Shown piece by piece: positions 1-17,675 of a stretch of DNA of 54,646 nucleotides. The translations under genes and the position numbers were made by a program. The notes beneath the pieces were generated by a model, which was not told where the DNA came from, made no database searches, and saw nothing but the letters and a program-made list of their open reading frames with translations. Source of the DNA: Candidatus Gastranaerophilales bacterium (GTDB lineage Bacteria; Cyanobacteriota; Vampirovibrionia; Gastranaerophilales; Gastranaerophilaceae); NCBI GenBank assembly GCA_944323275.1, contig CALUSA010000005.1, positions 1 through 54,646 on the forward strand, in the 5' to 3' direction. The first letter of the stretch is position 1. Each line of letters begins with the position of its first letter.

Positions 1-24
1 ATTTGAGCCCTGTGCACCTGCCAT
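1..24 (-). CDS. 5' end of a flagellar gene, probably fliI (cut by the window edge)
   Basis: Only the first eight codons are present (MAGAQGSN). The ATG overlaps the fliH stop codon in a TAATG arrangement, so the two are translationally coupled. A strong Shine-Dalgarno sequence, AAGGAGG, lies about 16 bases upstream inside the 3' end of fliH. Calling it fliI (the export ATPase that FliH regulates) is an inference from the usual order fliF-fliG-fliH-fliI, since no diagnostic residue is visible. Confidence 0.45.
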
Positions 25-800
25 TAGATTTGTTTAAATGCCTCCTTGATTAATTCAAGCTGTGTTTTTATATTTGCATCAATAATTCCGTTTGATGTTT
101 CGATAATAGCAGAGCCTTCTTCTACATCTTTATCGCCGGATACATAAATTTTCGCCTCAAATTGTCCTGAGGACAACAGATTAGGCACTATATCTTTTGT
201 GTATTCAACATCAGTCGGATTTACTTTAAGTATAATTTTATTTTCGTCTTTAGCAAGACTTTTCAATGCATCGTTAACAATTGCGTCAAGTATTGTTCTG
301 TCACTTGCAACTTCTTTTTTGATAATTTTTTCGGCAACTTTTAGAGATATATCCAAAATATCCTCTGAAACTTTTTTATAAACAACATCTTTGTATGTAA
401 AAAATTCTTCAATTGCACGTTTTAACGTTTTTACGGAATCATGAGCCTCTACAAGCCCTTTTTCATAACCTTCTTTACTTGCCTGTTCCTTTATTGCAAT
501 AGCTTCCTGCTGCGCACGGGAAATTAAATTTCTGTCATCAATACGTCTGTACCCCCGTCTTCTGTCGCCACGGCGTCTTTCTGCACGCTGATTGAATTCA
601 ATTTCATCAAAGTTAAAACCTGCAAAAATATCTGTTTTATCTTCTTTTGCTTCCTCTTGCGGTTCCTGTTGTTGTACGGGCATTTCTTCAACAATTTGCG
701 GTTGTTCAACAATTTCCTGCTCAACATTTTGGGCAGGGACCTGAATTTTTTCAGGTTTAGGTTTTATTATTTTTTTCTGATTATGTTTTTTTATTATCAT
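24..800 (-). CDS. fliH: Flagellar assembly protein FliH
   Basis: This 258-residue protein should be the stator-like regulator of the flagellar export ATPase FliI, acting at the cytoplasmic face of the basal body. The C-terminal half fits FliH/YscL: a long helix with the GYEKGLVEAHDS segment around residues 112-124, then VAEKIIKKEV, LKVNPTDVEY, and a closing GSAIIETSNGIIDANI block. The N-terminal 60 residues are low-complexity, rich in Q, E and P. An unusual arginine-rich stretch (about residues 72-90, ERRRGDRRRGYRRIDDR) lies just before the helix and is not part of FliH as I know it. It follows the fliG-position gene by 25 bases and overlaps the next gene by one base, so it belongs to the flagellar operon. 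Confidence 0.88.
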   Translation of the reverse strand: MIIKKHNQKKIIKPKPEKIQVPAQNVEQEIVEQPQIVEEMPVQQQEPQEEAKEDKTDIFAGFNFDEIEFNQRAERRRGDRRRGYRRIDDRNLISRAQQEAIAIKEQASKEGYEKGLVEAHDSVKTLKRAIEEFFTYKDVVYKKVSEDILDISLKVAEKIIKKEVASDRTILDAIVNDALKSLAKDENKIILKVNPTDVEYTKDIVPNLLSSGQFEAKIYVSGDKDVEEGSAIIETSNGIIDANIKTQLELIKEAFKQI

Positions 801-825
801 CCGTTAATTTGTCCTGCAGGTGTTA

Positions 826-1851
826 TTAACGCCGTGTTAGTTTTTCTTCAAGGTGATTGCATATAATTTCTGCAATACGAGGTGTTATGGGCGAATTTCT
901 GTTACCGGAAGAAACGTTAGCAATATAATCACGGACTGCTTTGCGTTCTTTACCCATAATATTAGAAATTTTGGAAATATCCGAATTTTTTACAATATTA
1001 TATAATTTTTGATTAATTCTTACCGGATTAACCTTTTTGGATTTTGGCAGAGAATTTTTTATTTCTTTTAAGCCTTTTGCCACAATCATAGGATCCAATC
1101 TGTTTTCCAAGTCTTCCATTGAGGCATAGTCAATAAGAATTGCCGCATCATTTTCGTCAAATCTTTCAATCAGGCTCTGTCTTTTTTCAGGCGGAAGATG
1201 CCTTAAAACAATCGCAAAAGTTGCAAGTTTTAGAATTTTAGTATCACTTAACTGATCTGCATAACTGTTTGCTGCAGGTTGAGCATTTCCTGCCGCAGGT
1301 TGTGCCTGTTGTTGTTGCGTCTGCGTCTGAGCCTGCTGTTGTGCTTCCTGCTGGGCTGCCTGTTGTGCCATTTCATCAATATTAGAATGACTTAAAGCTT
1401 CTTTAACCTGAGCCTCGGTCAAAGCTCCTCTGTTTTTGAGTTCCTCTAAAGCTTCGTTATAAGCTTTTTTTACCTGAAATTCCACAACAGCAATCATATC
1501 AGGCTGGGGCATATTTTTTATGGTTGCTGTTTTGGCTATTTCAAATATGGTAAATGCTATTTTTTGCAAAATACCATCTCTAAACTGCGGGTCAATATGA
1601 CTTCTTATAATATCAATAGATTTGTGAAACGACCATTCTCCGATAAACTGGGTTATGATAGACGCCTGATGAGCATTAAGCTTTATGGTTGTATCATTTG
1701 CAAGAGCTTCGCCTGCCATATAACAAAAATTATGAACAATATTAATAATATATTGCCGGTCTGCATCGGCAATATCAGAAGGCAATGCAGGACCGACTTC
1801 TGCCGAAATTGCTTTTGCAAATTCTTTATAATCAAAACCTTCTATTGGCAA
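826..1851 (-). CDS. FliG-position flagellar protein, strongly divergent or unrelated to canonical FliG
   Basis: The gene lies between fliF and fliH, where fliG (rotor switch protein binding FliF and the stator) is normally found, and its 341 residues match FliG length. The FliG hallmarks are not visible: there is no EHPQTIA-type motif in the middle domain and no obvious charged torque helix. What is seen is a helical N-terminal domain (1-165), a Q/A-rich linker (about 166-205), a helical middle part with LRHLPPEKRQSLIERFD (about 217-233) and a basic C-terminus that could form a helix-turn-helix-like bundle. The start is a TTG at 1851, preceded six bases upstream by a strong GGGGGAG ribosome site. 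It could be a highly diverged FliG or a lineage-specific C-ring adaptor. The flagellar role is inferred from position only. Confidence 0.5.
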   Translation of the reverse strand: MPIEGFDYKEFAKAISAEVGPALPSDIADADRQYIINIVHNFCYMAGEALANDTTIKLNAHQASIITQFIGEWSFHKSIDIIRSHIDPQFRDGILQKIAFTIFEIAKTATIKNMPQPDMIAVVEFQVKKAYNEALEELKNRGALTEAQVKEALSHSNIDEMAQQAAQQEAQQQAQTQTQQQQAQPAAGNAQPAANSYADQLSDTKILKLATFAIVLRHLPPEKRQSLIERFDENDAAILIDYASMEDLENRLDPMIVAKGLKEIKNSLPKSKKVNPVRINQKLYNIVKNSDISKISNIMGKERKAVRDYIANVSSGNRNSPITPRIAEIICNHLEEKLTRR

Positions 1852-1944
1852 TTTGTTCTCCCCCTGTTTGTTTTAAGCTGATAATATCCATATATTATTT
1901 TGCTTTTACAATTTATTCGTTTTTCCGGTCTTTCAATTCAGAAA

Positions 1945-2094
1945 GCCCTAAAGGCTTCACACCGGCTTACGCCTTTTTTGCTCCTGTGGGCTTCGGACTT
2001 TCGTCCTGCAGTCCTACGTCGCCATCGTTATGTTTTGCCCTCTCTGACTTGACCTGCGTCAAGTCCTTTCGGGCTTCACACCGGCTTACGCCTT
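1945..2094 (-). repeat. GC-rich structured repeat block next to fliF
   Basis: This GC-richer island fills most of the 234-base gap between the fliG-position gene and fliF and runs into the last codons of fliF. A 23-base sequence (GGCTTCACACCGGCTTACGCCTT on the plus strand) occurs exactly twice, at 1953-1975 and 2072-2094. Several short hairpins lie inside: GGAC-TTTC-GTCC at 1995-2006 (GAAA loop on the minus strand), GACTTGAC-CTGC-GTCAAGTC at 2046-2065, and GGC-GTAA-GCC within each 23-base copy. The minus-strand motif GTGTG followed by an AAGCC/GGCTT hairpin resembles the element between groES and groEL. It is probably an interspersed palindromic repeat family, with unknown function. Confidence 0.75.
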
Positions 2095-3714
2095 CTCAAT
2101 CCAGCTTTTTACGTGATCAGCCACATCATCATTTTCAAGTCCTTCGAGTTCTGCAGCTATATCCGCAAGAGTAGAATTGAGTTCGGGTATTATTTGTCTT
2201 GCCTGTTTTTGTTCAAGCATACCCTGTGCCAGCTGAGTTTGTCTTTCAATAAGCTCAGCTGCTTTGAGATTTACATCTCTAATTTGTTTTTCCTGATCTT
2301 GTGTTTTTTCTCTAAGCATTTCAATTTCTTCTTTCTGTTTTTGCTGTGCAGCCTTAACCCTATCAGATAAGAATTTAAGCCCTACACCAAGACCTATTAA
2401 TATTAAAGCAATTGCAATCCACCACGGGTTACCTGTAGAATCAGGTTTTGGCAATGATTCCGGTTTATCACCTGCAAGGAACGGGTCTACGGAATCAGAA
2501 AACGCAATTTCAACATTTTCAGGTCTTGCTTTTGGAGAAGCTGCTTTGGCAATCAAGACTTTTAACTCCTCAAGCGTCATATTGGCAGGAATAGCACTTT
2601 CTTCAAGAGTTACAGCAATAGAAATATCTTCAATTGTACCGGGTTTAACAAGTTCGCTTGTTTGAATTTTAGGTACACCGTACTGTGACTCTCTTGCAGT
2701 TCTTGAGTAGCTTCTGTTTTGTGCTGAATCAGCATTATTGGCGGGCAGTCCGTTAGGCAGGTAAACGCTGACCGCACTGATACCTTTATTTGTATCTCTT
2801 GTCTGGTCGCCTAAACCTTCAGAGAAAGTTTGCTCAGTCAGAGAAGTTTTCTTTGTCGGGTCAAAATCTATAGCATCCTTTTGCATAGGCGATTGTCTTA
2901 AATATGTACTGACAGTAACAGCATAATTGCCTTTGCCTATCAATTTATCAAGCTGAGTTTTGACTTTAGCCTGCATGTACTGGTCATTTTCCTCTAATTT
3001 TGCAAGCATATCATCATCAGCAGACGCTATAGAATCATAAACATTACCGTTTGTATCGGTAATTGAAATATTTTCCGCTTCCAATCCGTTAACGGAACCA
3101 AGCAAGAGGTTTCTTATTGCTTTGACCTTCATATTGTCAAGTTTTTCACCGCTTGGCATAACTATTTGAACAGTTGCGGTAATTGGTTTTTGATCCTGCT
3201 CAAACATTACCTGTTCAGGAATAGAAACAAATACCGAGGCATTTTCTATAGGCGGGATTTTTCTTATTAACCTGGACAGTTCACCGTTGATTGCACGGGT
3301 AAGACGGATTCTTTTATCTTCTTTAGTAGAGGTAAAATCCCCTTTATCAAATATCTCAAGACCTATATTCTGGTCAACAAGACCGCTTTTTACAATTGCT
3401 AAAAGAGCTCTGTCCCTTTGAGTCATTGTATATTTTTTCAAATACAATACGGATTTTTGACCATCCATACGTCTGTCGGCAGTAATACCTTCTCTGGCGA
3501 GCAATGCCTGAATTTCTATGGCTTTACCGAGGTTGTCGGTAGTTAAAAGGTCAAGAGGCTGGTCAATAACTTTTTCTTTTACTGCTTTAGGGGCTCCGGA
3601 ATTATTTGAAGACACAACAATACCCACTGTTATAAACAGTGCAAGAACGACTACGAGTCCTCCTATTATCCCATACAGTAATGGCTTATTTGCGAGTATT
3701 TTCTGAAAATCCAT
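2086..3714 (-). CDS. fliF: Flagellar MS-ring protein FliF
   Basis: The 542-residue protein forms the membrane-embedded MS ring on which the flagellum is built. It shows the expected order: a short cytoplasmic N-terminus, a first membrane helix (about residues 14-34), the YscJ/FliF ring-building domain with typical motifs (LLAREGITADRRMDGQ, RAINGELSRLIRKIPPIENA), the periplasmic FliF domain (QTRDTNKGISAVSVYLPNG and following), a second membrane helix (about 427-447) and a cytoplasmic tail. The last helix (DDVADHVKSWIEKA) looks like the FliG-binding tail, so a FliG-like partner is expected. The stop codon TAA lies inside the GC-rich repeat that follows. It is the first gene of the operon, and its promoter is listed separately. 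Confidence 0.95.
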   Translation of the reverse strand: MDFQKILANKPLLYGIIGGLVVVLALFITVGIVVSSNNSGAPKAVKEKVIDQPLDLLTTDNLGKAIEIQALLAREGITADRRMDGQKSVLYLKKYTMTQRDRALLAIVKSGLVDQNIGLEIFDKGDFTSTKEDKRIRLTRAINGELSRLIRKIPPIENASVFVSIPEQVMFEQDQKPITATVQIVMPSGEKLDNMKVKAIRNLLLGSVNGLEAENISITDTNGNVYDSIASADDDMLAKLEENDQYMQAKVKTQLDKLIGKGNYAVTVSTYLRQSPMQKDAIDFDPTKKTSLTEQTFSEGLGDQTRDTNKGISAVSVYLPNGLPANNADSAQNRSYSRTARESQYGVPKIQTSELVKPGTIEDISIAVTLEESAIPANMTLEELKVLIAKAASPKARPENVEIAFSDSVDPFLAGDKPESLPKPDSTGNPWWIAIALILIGLGVGLKFLSDRVKAAQQKQKEEIEMLREKTQDQEKQIRDVNLKAAELIERQTQLAQGMLEQKQARQIIPELNSTLADIAAELEGLENDDVADHVKSWIEKA

Positions 3715-12596: not shown

Positions 12597-13193
12597 CTAA
12601 AAATGAGATTTTACTATTTTTAATATTTCTATCAATCTTTTGCTGACTTCGCTCTGAGAGATATTAACCTCTCTGGCAATTTCTTTTTGCTTAAACTCTT
12701 TGATGTATCGAAGGTAAAAGATTTTCAAAAATTCTTTTGAAGGATTTTCCTTTTGTGCAATCAAAACAATATCCACAATTTTTTGCAGAAGATCTTTTCT
12801 GACTACTTTTTCTTCAAAAGAATCTCTCGGGTCAGCAATATCGTAAACAAAAGGTTCGTAAGTAACGACAGGCTCCGGTGTTTTTACAACAACTTCAGGC
12901 TCCTCCTGAACTTTTGCAGGCACAGGATTCACAAGTACTTCATGAGTACTTACATACTTGTTGTCACGACGTCTTACCCTGCCGTTTTGTTTTAATACAG
13001 TCAAAATAGCCGTATTTGCTACTTTAGCTATATAACTTTCTATCTCTTTAATTTTTACGTTATCAAACAACGAGTAGGATCTTTTGTATGTTTCGGAACA
13101 AAAATCCTCGATTAAATCCTCGTTACCTTTGAATTTGTTATTAGATTTAACTAACTTCTCTATAAGCTCTCTTTGTTCGTTTATAGTATCCAA
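12597..13193 (-). CDS. Sigma-70 family (ECF-like) RNA polymerase sigma factor
   Basis: The protein has 198 residues. The N-terminal part (about 1-75) fits a shortened sigma region 2. An extended Pro/Val/Glu-rich linker (about 88-118) follows. The C-terminus is a sigma region 4 with a clear helix-turn-helix (FKQKEIAREVNISQSEVSKRL, about 165-185). The only plausible start is a TTG at 13193, without an obvious ribosome site. It lies 59 bases after the giant zinc-finger protein, with its own TATAAT at 13234-13239. Pairing a sigma-like factor with a protein carrying an HxxxCxxC anti-sigma motif suggests a sigma/anti-sigma couple. Region 2 is weak, so it could also be a sigma-derived DNA-binding regulator. 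Confidence 0.65.
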   Translation of the reverse strand: MDTINEQRELIEKLVKSNNKFKGNEDLIEDFCSETYKRSYSLFDNVKIKEIESYIAKVANTAILTVLKQNGRVRRRDNKYVSTHEVLVNPVPAKVQEEPEVVVKTPEPVVTYEPFVYDIADPRDSFEEKVVRKDLLQKIVDIVLIAQKENPSKEFLKIFYLRYIKEFKQKEIAREVNISQSEVSKRLIEILKIVKSHF

Positions 13194-13233
13194 TTTCGCA
13201 ATCCAATTCTATAAATATAAAATAACTTATTTG

Positions 13234-13239
13234 ATTATA
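13234..13239 (-). promoter_or_regulatory. Possible -10 element for the sigma-like gene
   Basis: TATAAT on the minus strand lies about 40 bases before the TTG start, in the short gap after the giant zinc-finger gene. I could not find a convincing -35 partner, so the sigma-like gene may simply be read through from upstream. Confidence 0.35.
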
Positions 13240-13252
13240 TCATATCATAGAA

Positions 13253-16200
13253 TTAGAAATTAATTATTAACGTTAAGAAATAATCCGATTTATAATTTTG
13301 CAATTTTGGAACACTAACATATTTAAGAGTATTTTTTATGCTTTTTGTAATAATTGCATCTATTTTATCAGACCCGCTTGATTCCAGTACCTGTATGCCT
13401 TTCAAGGTATTATCAGGTGCAATTTCAAACGAAACTTTTACGCTGTTATTAAATGCAACATCCGCAGCATTTGCTAAATCGTTTTGTAAATTTAATTGAA
13501 TATTTTTACCTGCAGTTTGTAAATATTCTTTAACAGAAGGTTCAACTGCAAGTTTTTCATTTACCTGCCATGACAATTTTGTAATTGAAATAGCAGCAGG
13601 TTTATCAGAGAAGGAGTTTGTCATTGATTTATTTATATCCTGCGACACAGCTCCGGAAGATGTATCTTGTTCTTCACCCTGTACTGCGGAATTTTGGAAA
13701 TCAAAAACCTGATTATCCTGCGCTGCATCAGCAGAATCATTATTTACAGCTGCTGTATTTTTCTGATAAATATAATATCCGCCTGCAATGCCGCCTATTG
13801 CTAGTAAGGCAATAAGAGCACCGGCGATTGCCAATTTTTTAGTCTTTTTTACCGCCTCTGCGCTCATTGGTTCCTGAGAAAGATCAAGTTCAACCTGTTC
13901 ACCCTCCTGCGGGGCTTCCTGCTCATCAAACAAATTTTCAATTTCTTCATTTTCTGCAATTTCAGAAGTATGTTCAGTTTCCTGACCTAAAAGTGCATCT
14001 TCTTCTGGCAACACAATCCCGTCTTGTGTTTCGCTATTTTCAGTATCAACAAAAGCAGATGGTTCAGCAGACTGTTCATCCTCTTGATTTTCTTTACCTT
14101 CGGAATCCTCATCAGAAAGCAACGCAAGGAGATCATCATCTAAAAGCTCCTGCAAATCTTCTTCGTCAGAATCTTCGCCCTGAATTTTTGCCTCGGATGC
14201 TGCCGGTACTGAAACATTAATATTTTGCCCGGTTTGCACAGGCTGTTCCTGTGATAAATCCTGTTGTGCAGAAGATTCCGCATTGTCTGTTTGCATATTT
14301 TCATAGTTATAATCAGGAAAATCAAAATCAGAAACATGTTCTTCTGTATCGTTATCAAACGACTCAATAACCGGCTCTTGTTTATTAATATCAAAGACAT
14401 CATCTTCGATAAAGCCTGTTTGATTTTCATTCTGAACAGAAATCTGTTCGGGTTCTTCATCATCATATTTCAACTCAACAGGCTCCTGTGGTTGTGAAGA
14501 CGCAACCCAAACATCTTCGGTAGTATCTTCTTCTTTAAAATCCGTTAATCCATCATCAGATAATCCAAAATCAGAATCAACATTATTTTGCTCTGGTGTA
14601 TTGTCCATATTTAATCCTGCTTGAAAATTATCTTCCTGAGGTTCAATCTCGTCTATAGTTTCCAGATCATCAAGTTCAAGCGAATCGGAACCGTTTAATT
14701 CAGAAAAATCGTCCTCGGAAATAGACAATTCATCAAAATCGGAAATATTCATAGTATCTTGTGCGGATTCTTCAACACTTTTTTCTTCTGCTGATTCTTC
14801 AATTTCATCAAAAGCCGCAAGATTATCCAGCTCCAATGAATCAGAATCGTTTAATTGAGGTAAATCGTCTTCCGGGATTGGTAATTCATCTGAATCGGAA
14901 ATATTAATAGTATCCTGTACAGATTTTTCAGCACTTTTTTCTTCAGCTGGTTCTTCAGTTTCATCAAAAGCCGCAAGATTATCCAGCTCCAATGAATCAG
15001 AATCATTTAATTGAGGTAAATCATCTTCCGGAATCGGCAATTCATCTGAATCGGAAATATTAATAGTATCTTGTACAGCTTCTTCAACACTTTTTTCTTC
15101 CGCTGGTTCTTCAGTTTCGTCAAAAGCCGCAAGATTATCCAGCTCCAATGAATCAGAATCATTTAATTGAGATAAATCATCATCTTCTCCAAGCGTCAAC
15201 TCATCTAAATCAGCAGTGTTAACAATATTCTGAACTGTTTCCTCAACATTTTTTTCTTCTGCGTGTTCGTCTACCGACAATTCTTTCGCTTCTTCTAATT
15301 CTTCGGAAAGAATCTCAGGTTCGTCCATTTTTGAAAAATCTTCCAAATCATCTAATGCCAAAGATTGTTCTGTTTCTATGTCTAAAGAAACACTGTCTTC
15401 CTGCGTTAAAACAGTATTTTCAGAATCATCTGACAATGAATCTAATTGAAGGTCGTCATCAGCGGCTTGCGTATTTTCCTCAAGATTGAGTCCGTCCTGC
15501 GCTGCAGATATTTCATCTTGCGCAAACATATCATCATCGCTTACAGCAAGCGGCTCCGGCTCATCTAAATCCAGAGAAAGCTCATCAGAAAACATCCCTT
15601 CAATAGAAGTTTGTTCATTTAAACTATCTTTAGCCTCAACATCAACAGGCACTTGCGGAACCAAATTTTCTTCTTCACTATCGTCAGAAAGCTGAAGATT
15701 CAAAGGTTCTTCTTCTGATTTCTGAATTTCTTCCGCTTTGTCTTCTGCCACTTCATCATCACTTTCCAACTGCAGCATGTCTTCTAAAGGCTCTCCTGCA
15801 AATTCTTCAATTGATGCGTTTAACTCATCAAAAGAATTTTCAGTTAAGTTGTCTTCAACTAAAAATGAATCCGTTGAAATATCAGCGTTTGAAACCTCCT
15901 GTGACATTTCTTGTTCTTTTGCTGCCGTATCGATAATATTTTCATCAACGGAAAGCTCCGGAACAACAGCATTTTCATTGGCTAACAACAAAGTTGAATT
16001 ACCTGCCTTGGCAGAATTTGTATTATTTGTTTCAACCTCTAAATCAGTATCCTCCAGCAATAAACTTTCCGAAGAATCTAAAGTTTCATCTTGTATATTT
16101 TTATCAGCTATCGTTGTTCCCTGAGAAGATTCAGGGGCATCATACATATTTAAAACCATTGGTTCAAGAGGTTCTTCAGCGGCTTGTGCAGCAAGAATAG

Positions 16201-17077
16201 AATCTGCGGCTTGTCCTGCAGCAGCTGCGCTTAAAGCACCAGACATCGTTACAGATGCGGCTGCTTCTTCCGCTGTTTTTTCTATTTCTTTGATAAAATC
16301 CTCGCTCGCATTTTCAACCAGTGCCATATGAGCGATAGCTGCTTGATCCACCTCCTCTCTGTTCCCTGATAAAACACTTAAAGTGCTGTCATTTAAGAGT
16401 TCGTGGTAATTCTTTAATTGAGAAACAATATCATCAAAGTCATTTATATCGCAGAAGGTATCACGGCATTGAGTACAATTTGCAACATGTTTAATAAAAT
16501 ATATTTTATCAGCTTCATCTGCCTGTTCATCCAGAATGCTGACACACAAAGACAAAATATTATCGTGTTCTTCATCAGAATATTTTTTAGGTGTTATATT
16601 TAACCCTTCTGCATAAGGAATAAATTCTTCAAAAGGTTTAAGCAAATCCAGAGGATATGTGTAATATTCTTGTCCGTTTTTATCATATTCAAGTTCGCTT
16701 TCCGGTATAAAACCTAAAAATTCAAAATCTTTCAGCGAATTGTCGAATCTTACCACAATATAAGCCTGAGGCTTAATATCATATTTGACCTGCAGCTTAG
16801 GCACGGTAAAAGTTTTGTCGTTAAAAGTAACCCTTACATCAAAGCGAGCGTTGTTAGCGTAAATATCGGCAATTTCTATTTCTTTGGCAAATACAGCTGA
16901 TTTATAAAGGCTATGGCTGGAGTGTGTCTTAAGACCGTTTTCCGTCAGATATTTTGCTGTGGCATTTGCTGCAATACCAAGAGCATAAACTCTTTTTCTT
17001 AAATAATCATCTTCGACTTTACAGGCAACAAACTTTGCATTATCAAGAACGTCTTCACCGATATTAATCTTTATCAT
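13253..17077 (-). CDS. DUF1822-like / anti-sigma zinc finger / acidic repeat / TM / TonB-C fusion protein
   Basis: This 1274-residue protein has five recognisable parts. Residues 1-150 resemble the cyanobacterial DUF1822 family (conserved-looking ADIYANNARFDVRV and FLGFIPESEL). Residues 165-215 carry HVANCTQC (His197, Cys201, Cys204), the HxxxCxxC motif of zinc-finger anti-sigma factors. Residues about 260-1075 are extremely acidic and probably disordered, with 52-residue tandem repeats. A single membrane helix follows (about 1082-1104). Residues about 1160-1274 look like a TonB C-terminal domain. The predicted topology puts the zinc finger in the cytoplasm and the TonB-like end in the periplasm, which suits signal transfer across the envelope to the sigma-like factor encoded next. 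The sigma partnership is inferred from motif and position. Confidence 0.75.
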   Translation of the reverse strand: MIKINIGEDVLDNAKFVACKVEDDYLRKRVYALGIAANATAKYLTENGLKTHSSHSLYKSAVFAKEIEIADIYANNARFDVRVTFNDKTFTVPKLQVKYDIKPQAYIVVRFDNSLKDFEFLGFIPESELEYDKNGQEYYTYPLDLLKPFEEFIPYAEGLNITPKKYSDEEHDNILSLCVSILDEQADEADKIYFIKHVANCTQCRDTFCDINDFDDIVSQLKNYHELLNDSTLSVLSGNREEVDQAAIAHMALVENASEDFIKEIEKTAEEAAASVTMSGALSAAAAGQAADSILAAQAAEEPLEPMVLNMYDAPESSQGTTIADKNIQDETLDSSESLLLEDTDLEVETNNTNSAKAGNSTLLLANENAVVPELSVDENIIDTAAKEQEMSQEVSNADISTDSFLVEDNLTENSFDELNASIEEFAGEPLEDMLQLESDDEVAEDKAEEIQKSEEEPLNLQLSDDSEEENLVPQVPVDVEAKDSLNEQTSIEGMFSDELSLDLDEPEPLAVSDDDMFAQDEISAAQDGLNLEENTQAADDDLQLDSLSDDSENTVLTQEDSVSLDIETEQSLALDDLEDFSKMDEPEILSEELEEAKELSVDEHAEEKNVEETVQNIVNTADLDELTLGEDDDLSQLNDSDSLELDNLAAFDETEEPAEEKSVEEAVQDTINISDSDELPIPEDDLPQLNDSDSLELDNLAAFDETEEPAEEKSAEKSVQDTINISDSDELPIPEDDLPQLNDSDSLELDNLAAFDEIEESAEEKSVEESAQDTMNISDFDELSISEDDFSELNGSDSLELDDLETIDEIEPQEDNFQAGLNMDNTPEQNNVDSDFGLSDDGLTDFKEEDTTEDVWVASSQPQEPVELKYDDEEPEQISVQNENQTGFIEDDVFDINKQEPVIESFDNDTEEHVSDFDFPDYNYENMQTDNAESSAQQDLSQEQPVQTGQNINVSVPAASEAKIQGEDSDEEDLQELLDDDLLALLSDEDSEGKENQEDEQSAEPSAFVDTENSETQDGIVLPEEDALLGQETEHTSEIAENEEIENLFDEQEAPQEGEQVELDLSQEPMSAEAVKKTKKLAIAGALIALLAIGGIAGGYYIYQKNTAAVNNDSADAAQDNQVFDFQNSAVQGEEQDTSSGAVSQDINKSMTNSFSDKPAAISITKLSWQVNEKLAVEPSVKEYLQTAGKNIQLNLQNDLANAADVAFNNSVKVSFEIAPDNTLKGIQVLESSGSDKIDAIITKSIKNTLKYVSVPKLQNYKSDYFLTLIINF
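14650..15225 (-). repeat. 156-base tandem repeats inside the acidic region
   Basis: Three consecutive near-identical units are spaced exactly 156 bases apart (for example the GATTATCCAGCTCC segment at 14821, 14977 and 15133), flanked by a diverged unit. Each encodes 52 residues of Asp/Glu/Ser-rich sequence with the core LNDSDSLELDNLAAFDE. In-frame unit length and high identity point to recent expansion, and copy number probably varies between strains. Confidence 0.85.
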
Positions 17078-17264
17078 AAAAATTCCTCTTATTCTGCTCT
17101 CTATTAATACAGATTACAGTTCTTAAAAAAATATTCCAAAACCATGTAAAAAATGTTATAATGTAACAAAATGTTTCATAATTTCAAGCATGATGGATTG
17201 TTATAGCAATAAATTGTTTTCTGCAGTTTTGTATAAACACAGTGTGTAAAAAAGGAGTGTAAAC

Positions 17265-17675
17265 ATGTCAAATAGCTTTTCTACAATTACGCCTATGAAT
17301 CCGGCAACTATTTCAAGAAAACCGACTTATGCTGTAAACAGCCAGCCACAACCGGCAGCAAGCACACCTATAGACGCTCCTGCAGGTCAACCAGCTAAAA
17401 AGAAAAGCCACTGGTTTTTAAAAACTCTTGCAGCAGTTGTTGTTCTCGCAGCAGCAGTAGGTTTGGGAAGAAAATATTTACCTAATACATTTGATCCTGC
17501 AGCAAAATTAGCCGGTACTGAAAACTTTATGCAAAAAGGTTTATATTACACAAAATTAGGCATTGCAAAAGCCGGTGAGTTTGTTAATACATATACCTCA
17601 AAAGCCTGGAATGCCACAAAGAATTTTGTAACCAATCTTTTCGCTAAAAAAGACGGCGGAAATGTTGCATCATAA
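17265..17675 (+). CDS. Small single-pass membrane protein, unknown function
   Basis: This 136-residue protein starts after a good ribosome site (AAAGGAG, nine bases before ATG). It has a Pro/Ala/Thr-rich N-terminus (1-45) and a basic KKKSH segment. One membrane helix follows (about 49-66, LKTLAAVVVLAAAVGLG). The C-terminus is amphipathic and lysine-rich. There is no cleavable signal. It is divergent from the giant zinc-finger gene across a 187-base gap that contains TATAAT at 17157-17162, and it ends in a strong terminator, so it is a one-gene unit. I do not recognise the family. Confidence 0.65.
   Translation: MSNSFSTITPMNPATISRKPTYAVNSQPQPAASTPIDAPAGQPAKKKSHWFLKTLAAVVVLAAAVGLGRKYLPNTFDPAAKLAGTENFMQKGLYYTKLGIAKAGEFVNTYTSKAWNATKNFVTNLFAKKDGGNVAS

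What the first reader, a model, noticed from the sequence alone, without database searches (positions are those of the whole stretch)
12597..17077. Giant trans-envelope protein joining DUF1822-like, anti-sigma zinc finger, acidic repeats and TonB-C, next to a sigma-like gene
Seen: His197-x3-Cys201-x2-Cys204, an 800-residue acidic tract, one membrane helix near 1082-1104 and a TonB-like C-terminus, followed 59 bases later by a gene with a sigma region 4 helix-turn-helix. Known: zinc-finger anti-sigma factors are usually about 200 residues with a short periplasmic part, and TonB-C domains contact outer-membrane proteins. Inference: a signal from the outer membrane or wall could be passed through the single protein to release the sigma factor. 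The fused layout and the gene order (anti-sigma first) are unusual.
Basis: partly seen in the sequence, partly recalled or inferred. Interest (0 to 1): 0.8.

Follow-up and report, generated by a model that had tools for sequence, protein, structure and literature searches.

The report
Giant membrane anti-sigma, three-gene sigma operon
Gut bacteria related to cyanobacteria carry a conserved three-gene unit in which a very long protein, anchored in the inner membrane, probably holds a gene-switching (sigma) factor inactive until a signal arrives; the parts are familiar but this combination, order and size appear undescribed.

Summary
Window 17077-13253 (-) encodes a 1274-aa protein, followed 59 bp later by an ECF-type sigma gene. 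The protein has a DUF1822 domain, a class-I anti-sigma domain (ligands H171/H197/C201/C204), an 815-residue acidic tract, one membrane helix and a TonB/TolA-type C-domain. The same arrangement occurs in all 80 sigma-anchored Gastranaerophilales loci examined. Predicted folds: residues 1-161 restriction-endonuclease-like, 170-241 like anti-sigma RsiW, C-terminus TonB/TolA-like. A DUF1822-sigma link in cyanobacteria is already published. Best reading: an autoregulated sigma/anti-sigma operon. Corrections: the acidic tract is predicted cytoplasmic, not envelope-spanning; no TonB-dependent receptor was found in this genome, which has a separate TonB-ExbB-ExbD operon, so a receptor signal through TonB-C is unlikely. 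Sigma binding, inhibition, signal and release are inferred. New variant of a known kind; interest 0.6.

The parts
17112..17139 (-). Predicted operon promoter TTGGAATATTTTTTTAAGAACTGTAATC (ECF-like -35 GGAATA + T-run, fixed spacer, -10-like TGTAATC), 34 bp before the start codon
   Evidence: 55 of 73 orthologous upstream regions match with <=2 mismatches vs 0 of 1460 dinucleotide shuffles; conserved block in the genus alignment; the only <=2-mismatch site found in this genome
13253..17077 (-). Giant protein gene, 1274 aa, predicted membrane anti-sigma factor
   Evidence: ORF; orthologues across the order
16580..17065 (-). DUF1822 domain (residues 5-166), predicted PD-(D/E)XK nuclease-like fold with a D71-x8-D80-x-R82 motif
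   Evidence: Pfam PF08852 31.7 bits vs 25; AF2 mean pLDDT 88 for residues 1-265; VIA Z up to 8.8; residue conservation
16298..16576 (-). Class-I anti-sigma domain (about residues 168-260), ligands H171, H197, C201, C204
   Evidence: zf-HC2 in 14/22 family members; helices 168-182, 188-200, 202-221, 240-259 (pLDDT about 60 or lower after residue 230); RsiW Z 6.8, RslA Z 6.1; H-x3-C-x2-C in 67/74 and H-x25-H-x3-C-x2-C in 62/74 full-length orthologues
13853..16297 (-). Acidic low-complexity cytoplasmic tract (residues 261-1075), length-variable
   Evidence: 31.9% D+E, net -240; whole-protein lengths of orthologues 764-1805 aa
14682..15178 (-). In-frame 156-bp (52-aa) tandem repeat, 3.2 copies, inside the acidic tract
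   Evidence: TRF score 777
13766..13834 (-). Single transmembrane helix (residues 1082-1104), N-terminus inside
   Evidence: hydropathy peak; K/R higher before than after the helix in 59 of 74 orthologues; KKTKK precedes it
13256..13582 (-). Periplasmic TonB/TolA-type C-terminal domain (about residues 1166-1274)
   Evidence: TonB_2 25.8 bits vs cut-off 22; Foldseek prob 1.00 to H. pylori TonB-CTD; VIA Z 9.1 TonB-CTD, 9.0 TolA
12597..13193 (-). ECF-type sigma factor gene, 198 aa (region 2, Pro/Glu/Val linker, region 4)
   Evidence: TIGR02937 49.3 bits vs 42.9; 23/23 orthologues hit TIGR02937
9171..12521 (-). Third operon gene: double zinc ribbon + AAA_16 ATPase + TPR protein, 1116 aa
   Evidence: Pfam DZR, AAA_16 over cut-off; directly downstream of sigma on the same strand in 74/80 loci, mostly 3-14 bp

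Best explanation
This is an autoregulated envelope-linked ECF sigma operon of Gastranaerophilales. Inferred mechanism: the cytoplasmic class-I anti-sigma domain of the giant protein (residues about 168-260) is sandwiched between regions 2 and 4 of the sigma factor encoded next door and keeps it at the membrane, inactive. The DUF1822 domain just before it (predicted restriction-endonuclease-like fold, probably not catalytic) acts as an input or second docking module. The long acidic tract is a flexible, length-tolerant cytoplasmic tether. The single helix and the TonB/TolA-type domain anchor and sense in the periplasm. A signal through that domain and/or the co-encoded zinc-ribbon/AAA_16/TPR ATPase loosens the complex (by conformational change or proteolysis), and freed sigma transcribes its own operon from the TTGGAATATTTTT-N8-TGYNNTC promoter. 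Shown by computation: the domains, their order, the three-gene linkage, the conserved promoter-like motif. Inferred: sigma binding and inhibition, promoter recognition by this sigma, topology, signal and release.
For: Giant gene directly upstream of sigma, same strand, 80/80 loci, median gap 51 bp. zf-HC2 in 14/22 family members, DUF1822 in 22/22. H171/H197/C201/C204 are conserved together and mostly lost together. AF2 model mean pLDDT 88, residues 170-241 match anti-sigma RsiW Z 6.8 and RslA Z 6.1 (RsiW). Sigma over the TIGR02937 cut-off. C-domain matches TonB/TolA. K/R flanks favour N-in. ECF-like bipartite motif 55/73 vs 0/1460 shuffles. Third gene next to sigma in 74/80. DUF1822 genes also next to sigma genes in cyanobacteria (PMC8195603). 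Class-I anti-sigma domains with or without Hx3Cx2C both occur, and about 65% of such anti-sigma factors have a membrane helix (PMC7406223).
Against: No direct evidence of sigma binding or inhibition; no complex was modelled. This protein itself gives no zf-HC2 hit. Zinc ligands are absent in several lineages. In family f6 (two genomes) and in G024 the two genes lie on different contigs. The promoter-like motif is not found in the f3 and f7 members tested, and the other hits followed up were nearly all inside coding sequence, so no wider regulon is visible. The RsiW superposition has rmsd 5.8 A over 65 residues.
Confidence: 0.7

Rival explanations
1. DUF1822, not the zinc domain, is the main sigma partner: it acts as a sigma-binding chaperone, inhibitor or co-activator inherited from the cyanobacterial sigma-DUF1822 module, and the zinc helical domain is a spacer or secondary contact.
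For: DUF1822 matches 22/22 family members while zf-HC2 matches 14/22; zinc ligands are lost in lineages that keep the gene pair. Cyanobacterial DUF1822 proteins in the alignment lack the Hx3Cx2C motif yet often follow a sigma gene.
Against: The anti-sigma-like helical shape is predicted in the window protein and the ligands are kept in most members; zinc-free class-I anti-sigma domains are common (PMC7406223). Only 6 of 20 cyanobacterial DUF1822 loci chosen across the score range had a detectable sigma gene upstream.
Confidence: 0.3
2. The input is intracellular: the DUF1822 endonuclease-like domain and the co-encoded AAA_16/TPR ATPase sense a cytoplasmic cue (nucleic acid, nucleotide or stress), and the TonB/TolA-type domain is only a periplasmic anchor or cell-wall tether.
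For: Third gene conserved beside sigma in 74/80 loci; endonuclease-like fold; cyanobacterial sigma-DUF1822 operons adjoin CHAT, caspase or CHASE2 genes and were placed among conflict/apoptosis-like systems by Kaur et al. 2021 (PMC8195603); no TonB-dependent receptor in this genome.
Against: The TonB/TolA-type domain is conserved with invariant residues in the 22 C-termini first aligned and in a second set of 56, which suggests a specific partner rather than a passive anchor. CHASE2 in cyanobacteria is an extracytoplasmic sensor (general knowledge).
Confidence: 0.35
3. An outer-membrane receptor signals through the TonB-C domain in the manner of FecA-FecR.
For: TonB-type fold of the C-domain; about 170 residues outside the membrane.
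Against: No PF00593 barrel in this genome, and none in 18 of 21 genomes; the helix lacks the TonB Ser/His energy-coupling residues (sequence; general knowledge); the genome has a separate TonB-ExbB-ExbD-ExbD operon.
Confidence: 0.08
4. The protein is a structural or polar scaffold that happens to share an operon with a sigma factor.
For: Long acidic low-complexity tract with repeats; flagellar-like genes lie about 9 kb away in the window.
Against: Anti-sigma-like domain and order-wide sigma linkage.
Confidence: 0.08

Closest known systems
Class-I (ASDI) zinc anti-sigma factors: RsiW-SigW (PDB 5wuq), RslA-SigL (3hug), ChrR, RsrA
   Same: Helical anti-sigma domain, H-x3-C-x2-C with an extra upstream His, gene next to an ECF sigma gene, membrane helix C-terminal to the domain as in RsiW
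   Different: Domain lies behind a DUF1822 domain rather than at the N-terminus; hundreds to over a thousand residues of acidic tract; TonB/TolA-type periplasmic domain; anti-sigma gene first, sigma second, ATPase third
Cyanobacterial sigma-DUF1822 modules (with CHAT/caspase or CHASE2 genes; Kaur et al. 2021, PMC8195603)
   Same: DUF1822 protein beside a sigma-70-family gene
   Different: Sigma gene first; DUF1822 is a separate 280-480 aa protein, without Hx3Cx2C in those aligned; different third gene
TonB / TolA
   Same: Predicted inside-N, outside-C single-helix topology and C-terminal fold
   Different: No TonB-type Ser/His in the helix, no nearby ExbB/ExbD, no TonB-dependent receptor found in the genome; giant acidic cytoplasmic part
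FecR-type transmembrane sigma regulators
   Same: One protein linking periplasm to an ECF sigma factor
   Different: No FecR or STN domain found; no receptor gene in the operon
PD-(D/E)XK nucleases (I-Ssp6803I, Hjc, SPARDA nuclease subunit)
   Same: Predicted fold of residues 1-161 (VIA Z up to 8.8)
   Different: D71-x8-D80-x-R82 with Arg where the catalytic Lys would be; activity not expected

Membership tests
ECF sigma factor | Score over the sigma70-ECF model cut-off | tested here: met
   TIGR02937 49.3 vs 42.9 bits; 23/23 orthologues match
ECF sigma factor | Directs RNA polymerase to a specific promoter | not testable with these tools
   Only a conserved ECF-like motif upstream of the operon
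Class-I anti-sigma factor (ASDI) | Helical anti-sigma fold | tested here: met
   AF2 helices 168-259; RsiW Z 6.8 over 65 residues (rmsd 5.8), RslA Z 6.1. Moderate scores; last helix low-confidence
Class-I anti-sigma factor (ASDI) | Hx3Cx2C zinc signature (zinc-binding subset) | tested here: met
   H197-x3-C201-x2-C204 plus H171; 67/74 full-length orthologues
Class-I anti-sigma factor (ASDI) | Pfam zf-HC2 match of this protein | tested here: not met
   No hit for the window protein at E <= 0.1; 14/22 family members hit, best 8.6e-7
Class-I anti-sigma factor (ASDI) | Cognate ECF sigma gene adjacent | tested here: met
   80/80 loci; on different contigs in G029, G034 and G024
Class-I anti-sigma factor (ASDI) | Binds and inhibits its sigma factor | not testable with these tools
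   No complex could be modelled
DUF1822 (PF08852) | Score over the family cut-off | tested here: met
   31.7 vs 25 bits, residues 5-166; covers model positions 2-170 of 370 only
TonB/TolA C-terminal domain | Pfam cut-off and fold | tested here: met
   TonB_2 25.8 vs 22 on the last 200 aa (20.6 on the whole protein); Z 9.1 to TonB-CTD, 9.0 to TolA
TonB energy-transducing protein | Ser/His motif in the helix and nearby ExbB/ExbD | tested here: not met
   Helix LAIAGALIALLAIGGIAGGYYIY has neither Ser nor His; ExbB/ExbD lie elsewhere with another TonB-C protein
TonB energy-transducing protein | TonB-dependent outer-membrane receptor in the genome | tested here: not met
   No PF00593 match in G000; genome estimated 96.8% complete
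PD-(D/E)XK nuclease | Fold | tested here: inconclusive
   VIA Z 8.8 and a run of nuclease rows, but Foldseek E 1.8e-2 at best
PD-(D/E)XK nuclease | D ... (D/E)-x-K catalytic residues | tested here: not met
   D71 64/64, D80 62/64, but R82 in place of Lys in 60/64; residue mapping onto the fold inferred, not superposed

The most novel reading that the evidence does not exclude
A previously undescribed signalling unit in which a catalytically dead, restriction-endonuclease-like DUF1822 domain sits beside an anti-sigma domain in one membrane protein, so that nucleic-acid or nucleotide binding inside the cell and a periplasmic TonB/TolA-type contact jointly control one sigma factor, together with a co-encoded zinc-ribbon/AAA_16/TPR ATPase. 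It would be the Gastranaerophilales branch of the cyanobacterial sigma-DUF1822-caspase/CHASE2 systems, fused into a single fixed chromosomal operon.
Probability: 0.15. Interest if true: 0.85.

Novelty: new variant of a known kind. Interest (0 to 1): 0.6.

Why it matters
Gastranaerophilales are mostly uncultured gut relatives of cyanobacteria; the library searched holds no paper joining them (or Melainabacteria) with sigma or anti-sigma factors under the terms tried. A fixed operon with its own conserved promoter gives a concrete handle on their signalling. The system also offers a functional context for DUF1822, a domain of unknown function, and shows an anti-sigma domain placed between a DUF1822 domain and an acidic tether in a protein family that tolerates a more than two-fold change in length.

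Tried and rejected
Scanning the whole protein with Pfam missed DUF1822 and put TonB_2 under its cut-off; scanning the ends alone fixed both. The first alignment was too diverse for a collection search, so a closer sigma alignment was used. Looking for a wider regulon with the promoter motif: in 20 fetched regions around secondary hits nearly all sites fell inside coding sequence. The idea that the split sigma genes of f6 and G024 keep the same promoter was rejected: they lack it, while the f6 giant genes keep a match or near match. TonB-dependent-receptor signalling was rejected as main reading. One M50 protease was found, which permits but does not support proteolytic release. Paper searches for a TonB-fused anti-sigma factor or a Melainabacteria anti-sigma factor gave nothing relevant. 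Covariation between the two proteins was not attempted with about 75 pairs.

Full report
Observation. The H197-x3-C201-x2-C204 motif, the acidic tract (residues 261-1075, 31.9% D+E, 2.5% K+R, net -240), the helix at about 1082-1104 and a TonB-like end are all present. Scanning the first 260 residues gives DUF1822 at 31.7 bits (cut-off 25; same place in a six-frame genome search). Scanning the last 200 gives TonB_2 at 25.8 bits (cut-off 22). The full-length scan had hidden or weakened both. The second gene passes the NCBIfam ECF sigma model (49.3 vs 42.9 bits).

Conservation. In 40 genomes drawn from the order, 39 match the giant protein and 40 match sigma, with one strong match per genome. A collection search seeded with sigma returned 80 loci, most of them labelled Gastranaerophilales. 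In all 80 the giant gene, or its 3' part at a contig end, lies directly upstream of sigma on the same strand. The 74 full-length proteins are 764-1805 aa, median 933; the median gap to sigma is 51 bp. Because the search was seeded with sigma, this does not measure solitary giant genes. In the 40-genome set the two genes lie on different contigs in G024, G029 and G034, which in draft assemblies shows only that they are not close neighbours.

Anti-sigma domain. zf-HC2 hits 14 of 22 N-termini though not the window protein. H-x3-C-x2-C is present in 67 of 74 full-length orthologues and H-x25-H-x3-C-x2-C in 62; the ligands mostly disappear together. AlphaFold2 on residues 1-265 (64 sequences, mean pLDDT 88) gives helices 168-182, 188-200, 202-221 and 240-259, the last with low confidence. 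Residues 170-241 align to anti-sigma RsiW (Z 6.8, rmsd 5.8, 65 residues) and 169-226 to RslA (Z 6.1). Zinc-free class-I domains are common and can be mixed with zinc ones within a group (PMC7406223), so the lineages without ligands do not count strongly against the assignment.

DUF1822 domain. Residues 1-161 resemble PD-(D/E)XK enzymes: homing endonuclease I-Ssp6803I Z 8.8, Hjc 8.2, SPARDA subunit 8.4, with a run of nuclease rows below; Foldseek alone is weak (best E 1.8e-2). D71 is invariant in 64 sequences, D80 is kept in 62 and R82 in 60. If these occupy the D and D/E-x-K positions, the catalytic Lys is replaced by Arg, so a dead nuclease-like module is the likelier reading. Kaur et al. call DUF1822 a TPR protein and place it with an ECF sigma gene and EACC2-caspase genes (PMC8195603).

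Membrane and C-terminus. K/R counts are higher before than after the helix in 59 of 74 orthologues and lower in 4, so the acidic tract is most likely cytoplasmic and 164-254 residues are outside. The C-domain model (residues about 1166-1274, pLDDT mostly above 90) matches TonB-CTD (Z 9.1) and TolA (Z 9.0). No TonB-dependent receptor barrel was found in this genome, and only 3 of 21 genomes have one. The genome has a separate operon with a clear TonB-C protein, ExbB and two ExbD genes. The helix has no Ser or His. So a TonB-like shape does not mean TonB-like energy coupling here.

Third gene. The 1116-aa protein at 12521-9171 has double zinc ribbons, an AAA_16 ATPase domain and TPRs. Its orthologue follows sigma on the same strand in 74 of 80 loci, most often 3-14 bp away; it is missing beside sigma in L146, L147, L153, L154, L207 and L211. 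The unit is therefore, in most members, a three-gene operon.

Promoter. A 28-bp motif TTGGAATA(T/A)TTTT-N8-TGYNNTC lies upstream of the operon (window 17112-17139). It was noticed in the genus alignment and then found in other families. Of 73 upstream regions, 55 match with at most 2 mismatches, 45 with none, against 0 of 1460 shuffles; the pattern was drawn from part of the same data, and many of the 73 are from related species, so the counts are somewhat favoured. GGAATA plus a T-run at fixed spacing is ECF-like (general knowledge). It is absent in the f3 and f7 members tested and at the split sigma genes, while f6 giant genes keep a match or near match. Genome-wide hits other than the operon were nearly all inside coding sequence where followed up. 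Autoregulation is the simplest reading; a wider regulon was not found.

Cyanobacteria. PF08852 occurs in 130 of 194 genomes of the phylum sampled (that count includes members of this order). Of 12 cyanobacterial loci, mostly top-scoring, 9 have a sigma gene directly upstream of DUF1822; of 20 more spread over the score range, 6 have a detectable one. Annotated plasmids show sigma-DUF1822-CHAT, caspase-sigma-DUF1822 and sigma-DUF1822-CHASE2. So the DUF1822-sigma link reaches beyond the order and is already noted in print. The fusion to an anti-sigma domain, tether, helix and TonB/TolA domain, and the reversed order with an AAA_16 gene, are what appears new here.

Mechanism. Shown by computation: domains, order, operon conservation, promoter-like motif. 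Inferred: the helical domain binds sigma; DUF1822 and/or the periplasmic domain and/or the ATPase provides input; released sigma transcribes its own operon. I put 0.7 on an anti-sigma/sigma operon of this kind, and much less on any single input route. The confidences given for the rivals overlap with it, since two of them differ from it only in which module binds sigma or receives the signal.

Noticed in passing
window 17162-17178: Imperfect inverted repeat TGTAACA-AAA-TGTTTCA just downstream of a TATAAT (17157), strongly conserved in the genus between the giant gene and the divergent gene at 17265; possibly a repressor site for the divergent gene.
   Followed up: partly
window 17265-17675 (+): Divergent 136-aa protein with a hydrophobic stretch and no Pfam or NCBIfam hit, conserved next to the operon in 27 loci.
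   Followed up: partly
window 24-3714 (-): Proteins that look like FliH, FliG and FliF flagellar genes; the FliG-like ORF gives a weak TonB_C hit, probably chance.
   Followed up: no
L306 5953-8828 (G000 contig C12): TonB-C protein, ExbB and two ExbD genes although no TonB-dependent receptor barrel was found in the genome; what this TonB serves is unclear.
   Followed up: partly
L112 6111-10503 (G033): Giant gene split over two overlapping frames within the acidic tract; an assembly error or a frameshift in repeats.
   Followed up: no
L120-L131, L307-L326, L212-L215: Most cyanobacterial sigma genes beside DUF1822 are long (up to about 560 aa) and some score under the ECF cut-off; several upstream genes of 216-476 aa have no hit and may be diverged sigma factors.
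   Followed up: partly
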